NCBI GenBank assembly: GCA_003242035.1
Contig: QBMC01000007.1
Location: forward strand, 1 to 59,723
DNA length: 59,723 nucleotides
Direction of reading: 5' to 3'
Origin: Nodosilinea foveolarum
GTDB lineage: Bacteria > Cyanobacteriota > Cyanobacteriia > Phormidesmidales > Phormidesmidaceae
Position 1 is the stretch's first letter, and each line of letters opens with the position of its first letter. Shown here piece after piece: positions 8,865-59,723 of the stretch. A model generated the notes under the pieces. It did no database searches. It saw only the letters and a program-made list of their open reading frames with translations, and had not been told where the DNA came from. The translations under genes and the position numbers were made by a program.

Positions 8865-9509
8865 TTATTCGGACCTGTGAAAACCATATTTGACTGCTAG
8901 GAAGAGAGTCGTTAGCACCAGGAGTGCAACGGCTAACCCTAAGCGCATAGATTGAATCGGCCACAGGCAGAGTAACCCGGCTGTAATCGCATTGACAGTT
9001 AGAACAGCCTGACGATCTTGGATGCCGAGCGAGACAATGGGGACGGGTTTTGCGGGATGTAACTGAATGCTGGCGAGCAAGTTGAACCAGAACTGGCTCA
9101 AAACAATCATGACTGCGCCAACTGGGAGAGACGCAAACGTGAGATAGAAACCTGTTACTTCTAGTGCAATCGTACTAACAACAACTGTGCGAAAGCGGTT
9201 GAGCTGCTGTGACTGTTGAGGCTGTGCTGACGGCTCTGTCATTTTGGGCTGTGCTGTTGCAGCGGCTATCGTGGGCGAGCCTGTATCCACGGTCTCGCTT
9301 GATGTTTTAGCGATGGTTAGCAGCTCTATATTTTGAAGGTCTACCCAGGCCATGCGAGTTAGTTCTGGGCAGAAGAGGGCGAGGGCGAGGGCGAGTATCT
9401 TTTGTGCGGCTGAAGGCGCGATCGCAATTTCGAAGAGCAATCCCATTCCGGCAGGCAGGAAAAGAAAAGGCACCATTTTGCGAAGCGTTGGCGTATGAAC
9501 AGAAAGCAT
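8865..9509 (-). CDS. Hypothetical membrane protein
   Basis: About 214 aa from the ATG at 9507-9509 (MLSVHTPTLRKMVPFLFLPA); a longer frame reaches 9611 but adds a polar stretch without a membrane signal. Hydrophobic segments occur near residues 12-45, 110-150 and 175-205, separated by a Ser/Thr/Gln-rich loop (TAQPKMTEPSAQPQQSQQLN). That suggests a four-to-six-helix membrane protein with a central soluble loop. I do not recognise the family. It sits between the two AT-hook-like paralogues, which may or may not be meaningful. Confidence 0.6.
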   Translation of the reverse strand: MLSVHTPTLRKMVPFLFLPAGMGLLFEIAIAPSAAQKILALALALFCPELTRMAWVDLQNIELLTIAKTSSETVDTGSPTIAAATAQPKMTEPSAQPQQSQQLNRFRTVVVSTIALEVTGFYLTFASLPVGAVMIVLSQFWFNLLASIQLHPAKPVPIVSLGIQDRQAVLTVNAITAGLLCLWPIQSMRLGLAVALLVLTTLFLAVKYGFHRSE

Positions 9510-10043
9510 GTTTTGGGTATTGGGTTGGTCTGCAATATGTTGAAACGATATTAACTGAAGGGTGATCTCTAACCATGAAACGTTCAGAGGGTTGGTAGAG
9601 TGGCACCGCATGACAATAAAACAATCGTGTCTTGCTAATAGGCTGGGGGGATAGGCTGCGATGGCGATCGCCGTTACGGTGAGAGCCTTGGATGCTGGCT
9701 TTTATCGATAGTTGTGGTAGAAGATACTGTAGAAATGATGATTGCTTAATTCAGGTGATAGTTTAACCACTGTGTTTTTCCGTTACAAGATGTTGTTGGA
9801 CAAGTGAGCAGCGAACCGAGAAAGCGCTACACTCAATTTTGTACTTAAATTTGGGTACTCGATTTTCTGCGATCTCAACTGCTGTGCAGATGATTAGCAG
9901 CTTGCTCTTGCTTTCTTAAACTGTTTGCTCTGGTGCGGTCAGCTTTTGCCGTACGCACTTGCGGCGAGCCATCAGCGACCGATGCGGAAACGCTATCTTT
10001 CCCATAACAAAAACGTAAACTCCCATCCATAAGGAAATTAAAA
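9510..10043. other. Divergent intergenic region before paralogue B
   Basis: About 530 bp separating the minus-strand membrane protein gene from the plus-strand AT-hook-like gene. It contains a HIP1-like ATGGCGATCGCC near 9661-9672 and ends in ATAAGGAAATTAAAA, a plausible ribosome site for the gene at 10044. No tRNA, small-RNA terminator or clear operator is visible. Confidence 0.5.
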
Positions 10044-10676
10044 ATGAGCGATCCTGTCCTTTCTCAACTCGTTTCTGTTGAGTCTGATTTGGCTCAGCAG
10101 GTAGATAGTCTAGAATCTCAGCTCGCCCAAGTTCAGGCCCGACGCGAAGGTCTGCGTACCGTCATCAATATGTTTGAGGGCGGCAAAGCCGAGGCGTCTA
10201 ATCCTGAAGCGGCTTCTCCTGCGACGCCTGGTCGGCCTCCTGGTCGGCCTCCTGGTCGGCCTCCTGGCAGCAAAACAACGCGCAAGGCGACGGCTGCTAA
10301 GGCAACTGAAACAACCACTCAGAAAAAGCCTGGACGCAAGCCAAAGTCTTCCACTGCGAGTACTCAGCCAAAAGCGACCAAATCAACAGGGAAGAAAAAG
10401 GATGGTAGAGCCGCTGACTGGCAGAAATATGTGCAGCCAGAATTTAAGGAGAGTGCTTTGCCAGAAGCTGTCAGCAGCGTACTGCGTTCGGCTCCTTCTG
10501 AGGTGTTTAAGATTGCTGACGTGATGTCTTCTATTTTTATAGAGGACGTGCCTCGCAGCCAGTTTTTGAAGGCACGTAACCGGATTTCTAACATTTTGTC
10601 GGCAGGCGCACGCGATGGTAGCTGGTATAAAGGTCGCAATGGTCGATACTCTCAGTCGGAGAACGCGACTAAGTAG
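10044..10676 (+). CDS. AT-hook/histone H1-like DNA-binding candidate (paralogue B)
   Basis: 210 aa with the same three-part layout as the protein encoded at 7659-8381. An N-terminal coiled coil (LESQLAQVQARREGLRTVIN) leads into a basic linker and a C-terminal domain containing FKIADVMSSIFIEDVPRSQF and RNRISNILSAGARDGSWYKG. The linker has three tandem GRPP units plus KPGRKPK, more hook-like motifs than the paralogue. The C-terminal domains are clearly homologous while the linkers have diverged. It may bind the minor groove of AT-rich DNA (inference). The next gene starts 30 bp downstream. Confidence 0.75.
   Translation: MSDPVLSQLVSVESDLAQQVDSLESQLAQVQARREGLRTVINMFEGGKAEASNPEAASPATPGRPPGRPPGRPPGSKTTRKATAAKATETTTQKKPGRKPKSSTASTQPKATKSTGKKKDGRAADWQKYVQPEFKESALPEAVSSVLRSAPSEVFKIADVMSSIFIEDVPRSQFLKARNRISNILSAGARDGSWYKGRNGRYSQSENATK
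10227..10266 (+). repeat. 12-bp in-frame tandem repeat (GRPP units)
   Basis: CCTGGTCGGCCT is repeated perfectly at 10227, 10239 and 10251, followed by a partial copy at 10263. Each unit encodes PGRP, giving a tandem of AT-hook-like cores. Perfect identity at the DNA level implies recent slippage. Confidence 0.9.
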
Positions 10677-10706
10677 TGAAGTCCTTGTCTATTTCTTTGA
10701 GGCTTT

Positions 10707-11522
10707 ATGGCATCGAGTAACCTAATGCTGAACAATCTTTGGATTAGCAATCCCTGGTTAGTGGCGATCGCAATCAATACAGTATTAATGGCGATCGCCT
10801 TTGCCATTCCCAAAAAGCTGCTCACCCCGGCTGGCTACGCTAACGCTTGGCTACTAGGGGTGATTGTGTGGGGTGCTTTGGGTTGGCGCGGCTATGCAAC
10901 AACGCTGTTTTACTTTGTTGTTGGCTCAGCGATTACTAAGGTCGGTAGTGCTCAGAAAGAAGCTGAGGGCACCGCTGAAGCTAGAGGAGGAGTGCGCGGC
11001 CCCGGCAATGTTTGGGGGTCGGCGCTAACCGGCGCAGTCTGTGCGCTGGCCATTGTTGCTATCAGACTTGGCTCGGAAAGTGCGGTTGACGGTGGCCTGA
11101 CTGCCGAGAGATCTAGTGTGTGGCTATCGCTCTTGACATTAGGATTTGTCGCGTCTTTGAGTACGAAGCTGTCGGATACTACGGCCACTGAGATTGGCAA
11201 GGCTTACGGGCAGCGAACTTTTTTGATTACGACGCTGCAGCCGGTGCCTAGAGGGACAGAAGGGGCGGTGAGTTTGGAAGGTACTTTAGCGGGGGCGATC
11301 GCTTCGGTGGCTTTAGGGGCGATCGCCTGGTGCATTGGACTCATTCCTTTAATCGGGGTCGGCGTTTGTGCGGTAGCCGCTTTGGGGGCAACTACCGTCG
11401 AAAGCATCATCGGCGCAACGATAGAAGAAAAGCTAATGTGGCTCACTCATGACTTGGTGAATGTCATTAACACCACGATTGGAGCGCTGTTAGCCATTGG
11501 TATCGGCTGGTTTATTCTGTAA
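10707..11522 (+). CDS. DUF92 family phytyl-phosphate kinase (VTE6-like)
   Basis: 271 aa integral membrane protein of the DUF92 family with at least six hydrophobic segments. The conserved core is KLSDTTATEIGKAYGQRTFL followed by TLQPVPRGTEGAVSLEGTLAG. Plant VTE6 and its Synechocystis homologue phosphorylate phytyl phosphate to phytyl diphosphate, recycling phytol from chlorophyll for tocopherol and phylloquinone. That assignment is by family. The ATG at 10707 is 30 bp after the AT-hook-like gene. A hairpin with A and T flanks follows the stop. Confidence 0.85.
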   Translation: MASSNLMLNNLWISNPWLVAIAINTVLMAIAFAIPKKLLTPAGYANAWLLGVIVWGALGWRGYATTLFYFVVGSAITKVGSAQKEAEGTAEARGGVRGPGNVWGSALTGAVCALAIVAIRLGSESAVDGGLTAERSSVWLSLLTLGFVASLSTKLSDTTATEIGKAYGQRTFLITTLQPVPRGTEGAVSLEGTLAGAIASVALGAIAWCIGLIPLIGVGVCAVAALGATTVESIIGATIEEKLMWLTHDLVNVINTTIGALLAIGIGWFIL

Positions 11523-11548
11523 AAAACCTTAAATTTTCAGGTTTTGGC
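11523..11548 (+). terminator. Terminator after the DUF92 gene
   Basis: AAAACCT (11523-11529) pairs with AGGTTTT (11539-11545) directly after the TAA stop. The short stem is AT-rich and ends in its own T-run. Confidence 0.5.
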
Positions 11549-11752
11549 TTGACTTGAATATTCAAATCAGGTGTGAGGGAATCGACGAATTCTTTATAGA
11601 AAATTGCTGTAGCCTACGAAAAAGCGTATAAAATATAAATATCGAGAAGCCAAACTTAGAAGCCAAACTCAGCCTGAACGACGTACGGGTGTTATTCGTC
11701 TGGCTTTAAATCCAAGCCCCTTAAAACCACCATAAATACGAGACTCCCGTCT

Positions 11753-12145
11753 ATGATGACAACGGTTACTGAGGAAACCTTCACCCAAGAAGTTTTAGCC
11801 TCTTCAGTCTCAGTGTTAGTTCATTTTCAAGCCCCTTGGTGCGGTATCTGTCGGCTCATTACGCCGATTTTGAATCAGGCGATCGCCGACTGGCCAGTGT
11901 CCCTAAGGCTAATTAACGTCAACGCAGACGAAAACTTCAAGCTCGCTAATCAGTACAAGCTAAAAACGCTGCCTACGCTGCTTTATATAGAAGGCGGTCA
12001 GATTATTCATCGGATAGAAGGAATTGATAACTTCGACGACTTTCGCCGCTGCCTGGAAAGTATTTCTTGCCGATATGGGTTAGAAACCGCCTATTCTTCG
12101 CGATCAGCCGTCAGCGAATTGCATACTTCAATCGACGAGCTTTAG
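11753..12145 (+). CDS. Thioredoxin family protein with CGIC active site
   Basis: 130 aa. A thioredoxin fold is evident from VLVHFQAPWCGICRLITPIL (active-site C30 and C33), NVNADENFKLANQYKLKTLP with the cis-Pro of TLPT, and LLYIEGGQIIHRIEG. The active site is CGIC where canonical thioredoxins have CGPC, which should change redox potential and partner range. About 25 extra C-terminal residues follow the fold. The start may be the second ATG at 11756. It is probably a soluble disulfide reductase; the target is unknown. Confidence 0.88.
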   Translation: MMTTVTEETFTQEVLASSVSVLVHFQAPWCGICRLITPILNQAIADWPVSLRLINVNADENFKLANQYKLKTLPTLLYIEGGQIIHRIEGIDNFDDFRRCLESISCRYGLETAYSSRSAVSELHTSIDEL

Positions 12146-12179
12146 TCAGGTTTGTAAAGGCTGCTGCGTCGTAGGGGTC

Positions 12180-12204
12180 AATAGTCGTTTTGGGACTATT
12201 TTCT
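12180..12204. terminator. Hairpin between convergent thioredoxin and response-regulator genes
   Basis: AATAGTC (12180-12186) pairs with GACTATT (12194-12200), loop GTTTTGG, followed by TTCTG. Short but well placed after the thioredoxin stop. Confidence 0.45.
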
Positions 12205-12221
12205 GCTGAGTTTTGGTGGCT

Positions 12222-12896
12222 TTATTCTGCCTGTCGAAACCGATAGCCGACGCCGCGTACGCTCTCAATCCAGCGGCCTTGACCCTTGATGTCTATTTTT
12301 TTGCGAAGTCTTTGGATGCAAACATCTACTACGTTGGTGCTGGGGTTGAAGTCGTAACCCCAAACATGCTCTAGCATTTGCGTACGGGTAAAGACTCGGC
12401 CTGGCGATCGCATTAAATACTCCAGCAAATTAAACTCGCGAGTGGTTAGCTCCACCGATTGCTGATCGCAAATCACGGTGCGGGTAATTCGATCTAGCTT
12501 GAAGGGGCCAACGGTAACCAGGTTTTGTCGTTCGCCGACGCTGCGCCGGACGACTGCGTACATTCGGGCGACTAATTCTTCGACGAAAAAGGGCTTGGCG
12601 ATGTAGTCATCTGCGCCCAGATTGAGTCCCTGTAGCCGGTCGTCTAGCTCGTTGCGAGCGGTGAGTAAAATGACCGGCGTGTTGCGACCGGCCTGCCGCA
12701 GATGCTTCAAAATAAACAGCCCGTCTTTACCTGGCATCATAATGTCGAGCAAAATCACATCGTATTCGTTGGCGATCGCCTTCTCGTAAGCCGTATCGCC
12801 ATGATCGCAGTAGTCCACTACAAACCCTTGCTCATTAAGTCCTATCTGCACAAAGCTGGCAATTTTCGGCTCGTCTTCCACAAATAGAACATTCAT
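12222..12896 (-). CDS. OmpR/PhoB-type response regulator
   Basis: 224 aa. The receiver domain carries E7 and D8 of the acidic pocket, phospho-acceptor D51 (VILLDIMMPGKDG), T79 in LLTAR and K101 in AKPF. A winged-helix effector follows (ELTTREFNLLEYLMRSPGRV, then the terminal VRGVGYRFRQ). It is closest in style to cyanobacterial RppA/NrsR/ManR regulators, which respond to redox or metal cues; the exact orthologue is uncertain. The ATG at 12894-12896 (MNVLFVEDEP) is chosen at the start of the fold. There is no kinase beside it; a lone OmpR-partner-type kinase lies at 33933. Confidence 0.88.
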   Translation of the reverse strand: MNVLFVEDEPKIASFVQIGLNEQGFVVDYCDHGDTAYEKAIANEYDVILLDIMMPGKDGLFILKHLRQAGRNTPVILLTARNELDDRLQGLNLGADDYIAKPFFVEELVARMYAVVRRSVGERQNLVTVGPFKLDRITRTVICDQQSVELTTREFNLLEYLMRSPGRVFTRTQMLEHVWGYDFNPSTNVVDVCIQRLRKKIDIKGQGRWIESVRGVGYRFRQAE

Positions 12897-27700: not shown

Positions 27701-28900
27701 ATGTCTGATCCTTATGCCTGGATAGAACAGTCTTTGAATACGATTCATCAGGCTCGCTGGCATCGCCGCGTTTTGGCGATTGATGGGATGGCGGGGCCGG
27801 TGGTGCAGGTGAATGGCCGCAGACTGGTTAATTTTGCGAGTAATGATTACTTGGGGTTGGCGGGGCATCCGCAGATTGTGGAAGGGGCGATCGCGGCAAT
27901 CAGACTGTATGGAACCGGGTCAACGGGGTCGCGTTTATTGAGCGGGCATCGGGTTTTGCATTCTGAGCTAGAGGGAGCGATCGCCCGGTTAAAAAAGACA
28001 GAAGATGCGATTGTTTTTAGCAGCGGCTACCTGGCTAATATTGGAACGATTTCGGCTTTGGTGAATCACCGAGATCTGATTTTGGCGGACGAATACAATC
28101 ACGCTAGCTTGAAGAATGGCGCGACGCTGAGCGGGGCGACGGTTGTTGTTTATGCCCATGGAAATGTAGAGGAGTTGGCTAATCTACTGGCGGAACATCG
28201 GGAAAATTATCGCCGATGTTTGATTTTGACGGATGGTGTTTTTGGCATGGATGGGGACGTTTGCGCGCTGCCAGAAATACTGGATTTGGCCGACCAGCAG
28301 AGCGCCATGGTGATGATTGATGAGGCGCATAGTGTGGGCGTGTTGGGCAAAACGGGGGCGGGCTGTGCTGAGCATTTTGGCTGTAGCGGGCGATCGCTCG
28401 TGCAGATGGGGACGTTGAGCAAGGCGTTTGCTAGTTTGGGGGGCTATGTGGCGGGCAGTGCGGCGCTGATCGATTTTTTGCGCAATCGTGCGCCTAGCTG
28501 GATTTATACAACCGGGCTTTCTCCGGCCGATACCGCAGCGGCTTTGGCAGCGATCGCGATCCTACAACAAGAACCGCAACGCCTAAAGCAGCTCGATCAA
28601 AATGTTCACTATTTAAGCGAAAGACTAGACTACCTATTAGCCGATCTCTCTTTTAAGCAAGCTGCTAATTTTAAGCGTTTACCAACCGACTCTGCGATTG
28701 TTTGCGTTCAGGTAAAAGACGCGGCGACTGTTCTGGCACTGTCTAAAAAGCTGAAAGATCTCGGTGTTTTTGTTTCGGCTGTTCGTCCGCCGACGGTGCC
28801 AGTTAGCCGACTGCGAATGAGCGTAATGGCGACCCACACGAGCGCACATATAGATTATCTGATCGCTGCTTTAAAGGACTGTTTGCTAGATGATGCTTAG
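27701..28900 (+). CDS. bioF: 8-amino-7-oxononanoate synthase
   Basis: 399 aa alpha-oxoamine synthase. PLP-binding K241 is in GTLSKAFASLGGYVAG. Other signatures are FASNDYLGLAGHP, GTGSTGSRLLSGHRVLH and VMIDEAHSVGVLG. It condenses pimeloyl-ACP/CoA with alanine in biotin synthesis. Paralogues of this family with other acyl acceptors exist, so bioF is likely rather than certain. The stop codon TAG (28898-28900) lies in the CTTAG that immediately precedes a small inverted-repeat element. No other bio gene is in the window. Confidence 0.87.
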   Translation: MSDPYAWIEQSLNTIHQARWHRRVLAIDGMAGPVVQVNGRRLVNFASNDYLGLAGHPQIVEGAIAAIRLYGTGSTGSRLLSGHRVLHSELEGAIARLKKTEDAIVFSSGYLANIGTISALVNHRDLILADEYNHASLKNGATLSGATVVVYAHGNVEELANLLAEHRENYRRCLILTDGVFGMDGDVCALPEILDLADQQSAMVMIDEAHSVGVLGKTGAGCAEHFGCSGRSLVQMGTLSKAFASLGGYVAGSAALIDFLRNRAPSWIYTTGLSPADTAAALAAIAILQQEPQRLKQLDQNVHYLSERLDYLLADLSFKQAANFKRLPTDSAIVCVQVKDAATVLALSKKLKDLGVFVSAVRPPTVPVSRLRMSVMATHTSAHIDYLIAALKDCLLDDA

Positions 28901-29046
28901 GAACGAGGATTAAATAAGATCTATTTCTATAGATCGGTAGGTTTTGGCTTCGACTACGCTCAGCCAGCGTAGTCTGCTGATACCGAACCCTGAGCGTAGT
29001 CGAAGGGTGGCTGGAGAGAAATCGGTAATTTATTTAATCCTCGTTC
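28901..29046. mobile_element. MITE-like element, 18-19 bp terminal inverted repeats
   Basis: GGAACGAGGATTAAATAA (28900-28917) is perfectly inverted at 29030-29047; with one more base the match is 19 bp. Inside is a second inverted pair, CTTCGACTACGCTCAG (28948-28963) and CTGAGCGTAGTCGAAG (28990-29005), so the element can form a long hairpin. Flanks are CTTAG on the left (28896-28900) and CTTGG on the right (29047-29051), compatible with a 5-bp target duplication with one change. About 146 bp and no coding capacity. The same end sequence occurs at 59670 inside the CRISPR array. Confidence 0.85.
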
Positions 29047-29164
29047 CTTGGGAGCTATGTGGAATTTTACGGATTTTGCTGGCTTATGCCTATAGGTCGG
29101 TCTTTAGAACGGCTTTGTCACTTAAAATACAATAATTGTTAGTTCATCGTAATTCCGCCTTATC

Positions 29165-57580: not shown

Positions 57581-58234
57581 GTGGGTCTGTTGCAAATTAT
57601 GTTGCCATTATGAGAGCCGAGGACCAGTAGGATTAAGCGATCGCTATGACAGTATTGGGGATCAGCAGAGAGACTCAATGAAGATCTGTGATTTGCGTTC
57701 TGTTTTTAGGGGATCGCACAGAGAATATATTGAATTTGCATAGTTGTTGCCAAAATGTTCTTTTCAAACACGCAAAGCAGATTTAGATGTCTATGATGGT
57801 TAGCGTCAAGTTAATACAAATGTTTCTATTACAGGGCGAATCTTCGTTTTAGCCCTTTTTTACCTGGTTTTTATATGGGTTTGAATCAAATCTGTTTGGA
57901 TGTATGTGCATTAGATTCATGCTAGCTGACGCTTTTGAAAGTGTGACAGTCCCCTGTAGCAGTCTTGTCGGTATTGGGTAGGCTGGTATCAGCTCAAACA
58001 GATCTCTCTAAAGGGCCTCTTGAAGACGGTATCTATCGCTACAAAAAAACAGGTTTTAAATGCTGTAGCGTTTTGCTTTATCAGGGATTGAAGCGATTGG
58101 GCAAAAGCTTCTTACGAGCTTCAACTGTCGCTTGCCTAAATTGATTAATTTGAGTTTGTGGGCGCTTTGTTGATAGCATCTGCCCTTTGCTCTTTTTTCA
58201 CTGAAAACTATTGAGTCAGAAAGACACTTTTGTC
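57581..58234. other. Long intergenic region, no gene found
   Basis: About 650 bp, AT-rich, with HIP1-like sites near its left end. GCTACA and TGTAGC around 58040-58070 form a short inverted pair with a large loop. No credible coding frame, tRNA or phage remnant was seen. The right end must carry the promoter of the gene at 58235. Confidence 0.45.
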
Positions 58235-58525
58235 ATGGACTATTCCCTTCCCAGAAATAAGAAATCTCTAGACGTTCTAAAGCCTGTAAAGCAGTGGCTA
58301 GAGCGCGTACCCGTAGAGAACCCCCGTACTGCGCATCGTATCGTTTCGATTATTCCGGCTGACTGTCCTTTCGAGCGCGACATCAATCTATTCGGCAAAA
58401 CGGTGGGTCATATTCCCCCGATGTGCAAGCTCAATCCGCTTTACGATCAGCTAGTGATGCTGCGCTTTAAGGCGATGTGCTATTTAGTGGATGAGTGCGG
58501 CGAAGATGGCAGTGCTTTTTCTTAA
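58235..58525 (+). CDS. Mo-dependent nitrogenase C-terminal domain protein
   Basis: 96 aa. RTAHRIVSIIPADCPFERDI, GHIPPMCKLNPLYDQLVMLR and FKAMCYLVDECGED match the small cyanobacterial 'Mo-dependent nitrogenase C-terminal' family as I recall it. Despite the name, members occur as stand-alone proteins in non-fixing strains and have no proven role. Three Cys are spread over the core. Start at ATG 58235 rather than TTG 58211. A terminator lies between it and the CRISPR leader. Confidence 0.8.
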   Translation: MDYSLPRNKKSLDVLKPVKQWLERVPVENPRTAHRIVSIIPADCPFERDINLFGKTVGHIPPMCKLNPLYDQLVMLRFKAMCYLVDECGEDGSAFS

Positions 58526-58647
58526 GCCGCTTACTTGCGCGAATGGATAGGTGTTTGGCTGGGCGATCGCGCTGGTGAGGCTAAGGATTCCTTTTGGCAA
58601 GGGTCTTGGGCGATCGCGCCAGATTCGGGATTCGCGCAGTAACGGGA

Positions 58648-58681
58648 GGCCGCAGTCTGACTGGACTTGCGGTCTTTTTGA
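58648..58681 (+). terminator. Terminator before the CRISPR leader
   Basis: GGCCGCAGTC (58648-58657) pairs with GACTTGCGGTC (58664-58674) with one bulge and a G-T pair, followed by TTTTTGATTTTT. Confidence 0.78.
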
Positions 58682-58783
58682 TTTTTGGGCGATCGCTATT
58701 ATGGAGACTAAAATGTTATTATTACTGAGGTTCGCGCATTCGCACTTTGAAAACCAAATACAGCAAGCCTTTCCAACGCGAGC
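58682..58783 (+). promoter_or_regulatory. Putative CRISPR leader
   Basis: About 100 AT-rich bases between the terminator and the first repeat. Orientation is deduced from the repeats: they end in GGGATTGAAAC, whose last eight bases ATTGAAAC are the usual 5' handle of mature crRNAs, so transcription should enter from the left. No promoter is proven. Confidence 0.55.
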
Positions 58784-59671
58784 GTCGCAAAACTAACCAA
58801 ACCCTCTTAGGGATTGAAACAGGCACCTCAACCGGCATACCCTTTTCCCAATGCGTCGCAAAACTAACCAAACCCTCTTAGGGATTGAAACAAAATTTTG
58901 ACTCCAATACAGTCACTGGCAGCGCCGTCGCAAAACTAACCAAACCCTCTTAGGGATTGAAACCAGATATACGTTCGTAGACGGCCCAACCTGTTCGTCG
59001 CAAAACTAACCAAACCCTCTTAGGGATTGAAACTAGCGGCTGGTATAGGTTGCGCGGTTGTCGGAGTCGCAAAACTAACCAAACCCTCTTAGGGATTGAA
59101 ACTTTCCTGCTGTAGGCGGCTTAACACTAGGTCGAGGTCGCAAAACTAACCAAACCCTCTTAGGGATTGAAACCCTGAACTCTTTGTGCTTATTGAGCCA
59201 ACGATAGGTCGCAAAACTAACCAAACCCTCTTAGGGATTGAAACAAAAGGTCTCTGAGTTTGTGTCTGCGCGCAGCGCGTCGCAAAACTAACCAAACCCT
59301 CTTAGGGATTGAAACGGTGTCGGCGTCGGCAAAGTTCTAGCGGCCATGTTCGTCGCAAAACTAACCAAACCCTCTTAGGGATTGAAACTGGCTTAAGGAC
59401 TATCGCTTAGAGATCTGGGCACGTCGCAAAACTAACCAAACCCTCTTAGGGATTGAAACGGAAAATTTGAGGCTTTTTCTGTGGAGTTTAAAGTGTCGCA
59501 AAACTAACCAAACCCTCTTAGGGATTGAAACGCAGTAGTTGCCGGTGAAATATTTGCCGTTGGCTTCGGCGGTCGCAAAACTAACCAAACCCTCTTAGGG
59601 ATTGAAACCCCCAAATCGGGTAAATCGGGTTTTTCGAGCAGGTGTCGCAAAACTAACCAAACCCTCTTAGG
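58784..59671 (+). CRISPR. CRISPR array, 37-bp repeats, 12 spacers in view
   Basis: Twelve identical full repeats begin GTCGCAAAACTAACC and end GGGATTGAAAC, with a CCCT-CTT-AGGG hairpin inside. They start at 58784, 58855, 58927, 58997, 59066, 59137, 59208, 59279, 59352, 59423, 59495 and 59572. Spacers are 34, 35, 33, 32, 34, 34, 34, 36, 34, 35, 40 and 35 bp, all different. A thirteenth repeat from 59644 is cut after CTTAG by a mobile-element end. No cas gene lies within the window. The repeat class resembles cyanobacterial arrays served by type I-D or type III systems (inference). Confidence 0.98.
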
Positions 59672-59723
59672 AACGAGGATTAAATAGTATACGATTTTAT
59701 GATTGCTGCGGGCGAGCTACATA
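59671..59723. mobile_element. Left end of a transposon inserted in a CRISPR repeat
   Basis: GGAACGAGGATTAAATA (59670-59686) is identical to the terminal inverted repeat of the small element at 28901-29046. It replaces the expected GGATTGAAAC end of the repeat. The following bases (GTATACGATTTTATG...) differ from the small element, so this is another, probably longer, member that runs past the window edge. Only the first 53 bp are visible. Confidence 0.82.

What the first reader, a model, noticed from the sequence alone, without database searches (positions are those of the whole stretch)
59644..59723. CRISPR repeat interrupted by a transposon that shares its end with the element behind bioF
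The thirteenth repeat follows the others exactly up to CTTAG, then continues GAACGAGGATTAAATA, the terminal inverted repeat found at both ends of the 28.9-kb element. The break falls in the 3' arm of the repeat's own hairpin. Insertion here would separate the leader from any spacers beyond it and remove the 5' handle for the next crRNA. It also dates transposition after array formation.
Basis: seen in the sequence. Interest (0 to 1): 0.72.

Follow-up and report, generated by a model that had tools for sequence, protein, structure and literature searches.

The report
Insertion sequences splitting a CRISPR array
In this cyanobacterial draft genome a jumping gene has landed inside one repeat of a CRISPR immune-memory array, and what is probably the cut-off older part of the array turns up on another contig behind a second, unrelated jumping gene; such breaks are a known way in which CRISPR arrays get split.

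Summary
Repeat 13 (59644-) follows the other 12 up to CTCTTA, then runs into GGAACGAGGATTAAATAG... to the contig's last base. In the same draft genome 7 contigs, this one included, end inside that sequence and 10 inside the matching opposite end; all 17 are flanked by TTA or TAA. Pieces of a transposase with the ISAzo13 Pfam domain lie inside. So a multi-copy insertion sequence (IS) interrupts the repeat, and the window stops where the assembly lost it. The element behind bioF is a 148-bp MITE with the same tips (4 copies seen), not the element in the array. A leader-distal continuation was found on contig C236: half a repeat, 7 spacers and a degenerate terminal repeat, capped by a different, ISAs1-like IS. 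In 4 of 6 congeneric genomes the end genes of this window lie beside those of C236, in matching order and orientation, without an array. Most likely one type I-D-like array of at least 19 spacers was split by two IS families. The middle is missing from the draft. IS and MITE insertions into CRISPR repeats are published (59 cases, PMC4852346).

The parts
58526..58783 (+). Leader side of the array; about 72 nt near its end resemble the leader of the array beside cas1d/cas2 on contig C42
   Evidence: Local alignment score 35 against at most 19 in 500 shuffles
58784..59643 (+). 12 intact 37-nt repeats GTCGCAAAACTAACCAAACCCTCTTAGGGATTGAAAC with 12 spacers of 32-40 nt
59644..59669 (+). 5' part of repeat 13, ending in TTA, the presumed target triplet
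   Evidence: 17 of 17 counted IS ends are flanked by TTA or TAA
59670..59723 (-). First 54 nt of the multi-copy IS with ISAzo13-type transposase sequence (3' end of the transposase gene, which reads on the minus strand); runs to the contig end
   Evidence: Identical over the first 49 nt in 7 contigs; the 108-nt copy on C20 encodes EFKQQMPIIFDDFLPNWNYVARPQQS-stop, like the C-terminus of the PF07592 protein of relative G005
28900..29047 (.). 148-bp MITE behind bioF with terminal repeats GGAACGAGGATTAAATAA; 4 copies seen in this genome
27701..28900 (+). bioF; its TAG stop is made of the TA of the target triplet and the first G of the MITE
58211..58525 (+). Mo-nitro_C domain gene, last gene before the array; synteny anchor

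Best explanation
A multi-copy insertion sequence with ISAzo13-type transposase sequence transposed into the TTA of the 13th repeat of a type I-D-like CRISPR array, with its transposase gene pointing back toward the leader. The array once ran on: its leader-distal part (half repeat, 7 spacers, degenerate terminal repeat) is at the end of contig C236, where a second, ISAs1-like IS abuts the half repeat. The cell therefore keeps a leader-proximal 12-spacer array that can still be transcribed and extended, and a leaderless distal fragment of at least 7 spacers that is probably silent or depends on outward transcription from an IS. Shown: the broken repeat, the IS ends, their TTA/TAA flanks, the second array fragment, synteny of both contig ends in relatives. 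Inferred: that both fragments were one array, target duplication at this copy, loss of distal expression. Unknown: what lies between the two IS.
For: Break and identity of the element. 7 contigs end in one IS end and 10 in the other; 17 of 17 are flanked by TTA/TAA, which make 2.75% of triplets in the window. Transposase: PF07592 on the 5' part on C170 (163 aa, 46.8 bits) and on the homologous 3' part in relative G005 (91.7 bits). Second fragment on C236. Synteny: in G001, G004, G005 and G006 (4 of 6 congeneric genomes) gor and Mo-nitro_C are followed, 88-313 bp after the Mo-nitro_C match, by the 289-aa gene, aroC and the 290-aa gene of C236, in the order and orientation that join C277 to C236 with repeats on one strand. 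No CRISPR-like direct repeats in the six stretches (only short tandem repeats in G005 and one two-copy repeat in G002). The smallest of the 39 contig lengths I saw, of 299, is 2,686, which would explain why IS bodies and a short middle piece are absent.
Against: No contig shows this IS followed by TTAGGGATTGAAAC, so the duplication at this site is not seen. Repeats on C236 differ from those on C277 by one base (position 11, C for T), while the terminal repeat has T again; this would also fit two neighbouring arrays. In 2 of 6 relatives (G002, G003) the C236 genes do not follow in the stretch fetched. No complete copy of this IS was recovered, so its two ends are paired by similar tips, equal flank rule, similar copy number and homology only.
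Confidence: 0.82

Rival explanations
1. Two separate neighbouring arrays with near-identical repeats lay in tandem, each with its own leader; each was hit by its own IS, and the second leader is in the missing stretch.
For: One-base difference between the repeats of C277 and the 6 non-terminal repeats of C236; several arrays with one repeat type lie close together in Microcystis (table in passages of PMC4428289).
Against: The C236 fragment has no leader and C277 no terminal repeat, so each lacks what the other has; a single array needs fewer parts.
Confidence: 0.18
2. A sub-case of the best explanation: both IS sit in the very same repeat, a few bases apart, so nothing is missing between the halves except the IS themselves.
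For: Neither a right half behind the ISAzo13-type end nor a left half before an ISAs1-like end was found elsewhere; both junctions are flush with the same TTA of the repeat.
Against: Short contigs seem to be absent from the draft (39 of 299 lengths seen), so a middle piece with several spacers would be lost as well.
Confidence: 0.35
3. Assembly artefact: the repeat/IS junction is a chimera at a contig end.
For: The junction is 54 bp from a contig end in a draft of 299 contigs, and many contigs end in this IS.
Against: The junction is flush with the IS tip and obeys the TTA/TAA rule of the other 16 ends; a random misjoin would rarely do both.
Confidence: 0.04

Closest known systems
IS and MITE insertions into CRISPR direct repeats (59 cases in PMC4852346, passages seen, incl. 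a MITE in a Microcystis aeruginosa repeat and arrays split by IS110 and IS1634)
   Same: A mobile element lies inside the repeat and splits a long array into shorter ones; more than one IS family in one array
   Different: Here the elements are ISAzo13-like and ISAs1-like; the target duplication and the middle are not readable in the draft
ISAzo13-type insertion sequences (Pfam DDE_Tnp_ISAZ013, PF07592)
   Same: Transposase domain on end fragments, inverted tips, multi-copy, constant TTA/TAA flanks
   Different: No complete copy recovered; the target rule published for the family was not found in the papers looked at
Cyanobacterial type I-D CRISPR arrays (repeat DR1 of Microcystis, PMC4428289, passages)
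   Same: By eye, the last 22 nt of the repeat differ from DR1 at one position; the leader resembles that of the array beside cas1d and cas2 on C42
   Different: No cas gene among the window and C236 proteins scanned; interference genes were not located
IS inactivation of cas genes (PMC10359306, passages)
   Same: IS blunts CRISPR immunity
   Different: There the cas genes are hit; here the array, so only distal spacers would be affected

Membership tests
ISAzo13-type IS | DDE transposase with PF07592 | tested here: met
   46.8 bits on the 5' end fragment of C170, 91.7 bits on the homologous 3' fragment of G005; the array copy itself holds only 54 nt and was not scored
ISAzo13-type IS | Terminal inverted repeats | tested here: met
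   GGAACGAGGATTAAATA and GGAACGAGGATTATATA at the two kinds of end
ISAzo13-type IS | Fixed short target | tested here: met
   TTA/TAA at 17 of 17 ends; duplication seen only at MITE copies, TTA on both sides in 3 of 4
ISAzo13-type IS | Complete element with both ends and one transposase | tested here: inconclusive
   11 PF07592 matches in the genome; none of the 6 loci read was this IS in full
MITE (element behind bioF) | Too short for a transposase, tips shared with an IS, several copies, target duplication | tested here: met
   148 bp, tips as in the IS, 4 copies of 148-151 bp with 142-149 identical positions pairwise; duplication at 3 of 4, this copy has TTA and TTG
ISAs1-like IS (C236 side) | Transposase and CAGGG... 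inverted ends | tested here: met
   C74 copy: 355-aa frame, a few residues masked, with PF13808 and PF01609; ends CAGGGCAAACGCATACTC inverted. That these mark ISAs1 is recalled
ISAs1-like IS (C236 side) | 8-10 bp target duplication (recalled) | tested here: not met
   By eye none at the C74 copy nor at the G002 copy in L121; C236 shows one side only
Type I-D CRISPR array | I-D type repeat and leader | tested here: inconclusive
   Leader shared with the array near cas1d (TIGR04093 over its cut-off); Rfam only below gathering scores, CRISPR-DR63 on + and CRISPR-DR60 on -
Type I-D CRISPR array | I-D effector genes (cas10d, csc1, csc2) | not tested
   Not searched for genome-wide

The most novel reading that the evidence does not exclude
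The identical TTA in every I-D-type repeat makes such arrays a recurrent landing strip for TTA-targeting IS, and here two unrelated IS converged on the same triplet, turning the older half of the memory into a leaderless fossil that can no longer be transcribed while the leader half goes on growing.
Probability: 0.15. Interest if true: 0.4.

Novelty: new member of a known kind. Interest (0 to 1): 0.2.

Why it matters
It is a clear case of how mobile elements cut a CRISPR memory in two, and it explains why the contig stops here. It also shows that array pieces on separate contigs of a draft (C277 and C236) can be one array, which matters for spacer counts and for reading the age order of spacers. 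The biology itself is already described in other genomes.

Tried and rejected
Exact search for the 25-nt IS tip in genome contigs: 0 hits. The 108-nt IS end in 38 genomes, the own one included: 5 with a match; of the copies read, those in G005 are decayed and those in G006 cut at contig ends. The idea that the GGAACG... end and the ...GTTTGCCCTG end are two ends of one element was dropped: the second belongs to an ISAs1-like IS with its own inverted ends and variable flanks. Protospacers: the array against 50,697 phage records gave one weak hit of 72.9% identity over 94 query bases (E 0.02), not counted. The 19 spacers against all loci held at that point, 1 to 6 mismatches: none; exact matches were set aside, so an exact match elsewhere would not show. 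Rfam: only sub-threshold CRISPR-DR hits. The repeat hairpin is not exceptional: 13 of 200 shuffles fold as well. PADLOC on 10 window and 10 C236 proteins: no Cas protein, one weak PDC-M43B hit; NCBIfam on 10 other window proteins: no Cas protein. Not every frame of the window or of C236 was scanned. Of the IS ends, C141 (25 nt of tip followed by unrelated sequence) and the two C17 ends (a variant IS) were left out of the 17 counted; they too have TTA/TAA flanks.

Full report
The observation. The window ends in a CRISPR array on the + strand: 12 identical 37-nt repeats (58784-59608) with 12 spacers of 32-40 nt, and a 13th repeat that keeps the first 26 bases, GTCGCAAAACTAACCAAACCCTCTTA, and then runs into GGAACGAGGATTAAATAGTATACG... 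to the last base, 59723. The 16-mer GGAACGAGGATTAAAT occurs at two other places of the window, as the two inverted ends of a 148-bp element at 28900-29047.

What the element is. The window is the whole of contig C277 (59,723 bases) of a draft genome of 299 contigs. Seven contigs, this one included, end 49-108 bases into the same sequence, identical over the 49 bases compared. Ten other contigs end inside a matching end, GGAACGAGGATTATATAAAATCC..., identical over 54 bases. All 17 ends are preceded by TTA or TAA; these make 2.75% of triplets in the window. Just inside the first kind of end lies the C-terminus of a transposase (C20: EFKQQMPIIFDDFLPNWNYVARPQQS-stop); inside the second, its N-terminus (C170, PF07592, 46.8 bits). 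A homologous C-terminus in relative G005 scores 91.7 bits with PF07592. So this is a multi-copy IS with ISAzo13-type transposase sequence, and the contig probably ends here because the copies could not be assembled. No complete copy was recovered: of 11 matches to PF07592 in the genome, none of the six loci read was this IS in full. That the two kinds of end belong to one IS rests on similar tips, the same flank rule, similar numbers and homology.

The element behind bioF. The gene at 27701-28900 is bioF (TIGR00858, above its cut-off). The 148-bp element has the IS tips and an internal inverted repeat, and folds far better than shuffles as single-stranded DNA (z -7.9). Three more copies of 151 bp lie on C6, C164 and C231, each with TTA on both sides; the bioF copy has TTA and TTG. 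It is a MITE, probably moved by the same transposase (inference). It is a relative by its tips, not the same element as the one in the array.

The other side of the break. TTAGGGATTGAAAC occurs 37 times in the genome, on C277 (12), C236 (7) and C42 (18) only. None was seen behind the ISAzo13-type end. But C236 ends with 55 bases of a second multi-copy element...GAGTATGCGTTTGCCCTG, directly followed by TTAGGGATTGAAAC, then 7 spacers, 6 repeats with C for T at position 11 (one of them with a further change) and a degenerate terminal repeat. This second element is ISAs1-like: the C74 copy has inverted CAGGGCAAACGCATACTC ends and a 355-aa frame, a few residues masked, with PF13808 and PF01609 (the family name is recalled). 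By eye no target duplication is seen at the two copies with both ends in view.

One array or two. Six congeneric genomes were read around the Mo-nitro_C gene that precedes the array. In four (G001, G004, G005, G006) gor and Mo-nitro_C are followed, 88-313 bases after the Mo-nitro_C match, by three genes from the end of C236 (289-aa gene, aroC, 290-aa gene), in the order and orientation that place C236 directly after C277 with repeats on the same strand. In two (G002, G003) they are not in the stretch fetched. None of the six stretches has CRISPR-like direct repeats (short tandem repeats in G005 and one two-copy repeat in G002 only). C277 has a leader but no terminal repeat, and C236 a terminal repeat but no leader. 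The simplest account is one array of at least 19 spacers, split by two IS. Two tandem arrays remain possible because of the one-base difference. Of the 39 contig lengths seen (of 299) the smallest is 2,686, so IS bodies and any short middle piece may have been left out of this draft.

Effect. The repeat is predicted to fold into a hairpin with stem CCCU/AGGG, though 13 of 200 shuffles fold as well; the break after TTA (repeat positions 24-26) falls after the first base of the 3' arm, and the interrupted sequence no longer predicts that hairpin. The leader of this array resembles that of a third array on C42 beside cas2 and a type I-D cas1 (TIGR04093), so this is probably a second array served by the same I-D system; the interference genes were not looked for. 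Spacers 1-12 stay behind their leader. Those on C236 are cut off; their silence is inferred, not shown. The transposition is younger than repeat 13, but the 12 repeats before it may be older or younger.

What is known. Passages of PMC4852346 report 59 CRISPRs with IS or MITE insertions in their repeats, including a 180-bp MITE in Microcystis aeruginosa and arrays broken several times by IS110 and IS1634. Passages of PMC10359306 treat IS insertions into cas genes and mention IS insertion into CRISPR loci. Passages of PMC4428289 give the Microcystis I-D repeat. The finding is a good new example of a known kind. I did not see an ISAzo13-type IS in a CRISPR repeat in the listings, which is not proof that none is published.

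Noticed in passing
window 28890-28912: The TAG stop of bioF is formed by the TA of the target triplet and the first G of the MITE.
   Followed up: partly
C236 (L149) repeats against C277 repeats: Repeat position 11 is T in all 13 leader-proximal repeats (the broken one included), C in the 6 distal ones, and T again in the degenerate terminal repeat.
   Followed up: partly
C42 (L150) 1-54 and 9469-12371: A third array of 18 repeats with a different 5' half lies beside cas2 and type I-D cas1; the other end of the same contig ends in the ISAzo13-type IS.
   Followed up: partly
C141 (L007) 1-190: 25 bases of the IS tip are followed by unrelated sequence up to the contig end: perhaps another non-autonomous derivative.
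   Followed up: no
window 28948-29005: The MITE carries an inner inverted repeat CTTCGACTACGCTCAG; similar palindromes are recalled from other cyanobacteria, not looked up.
   Followed up: no
C236 24739-25902: A 387-aa gene, HEAT-repeat-like by eye and without an NCBIfam match at the 1e-10 limit used, lies between the array and the 289-aa gene; no match over half its length was found in the stretches of the four syntenic relatives.
   Followed up: partly
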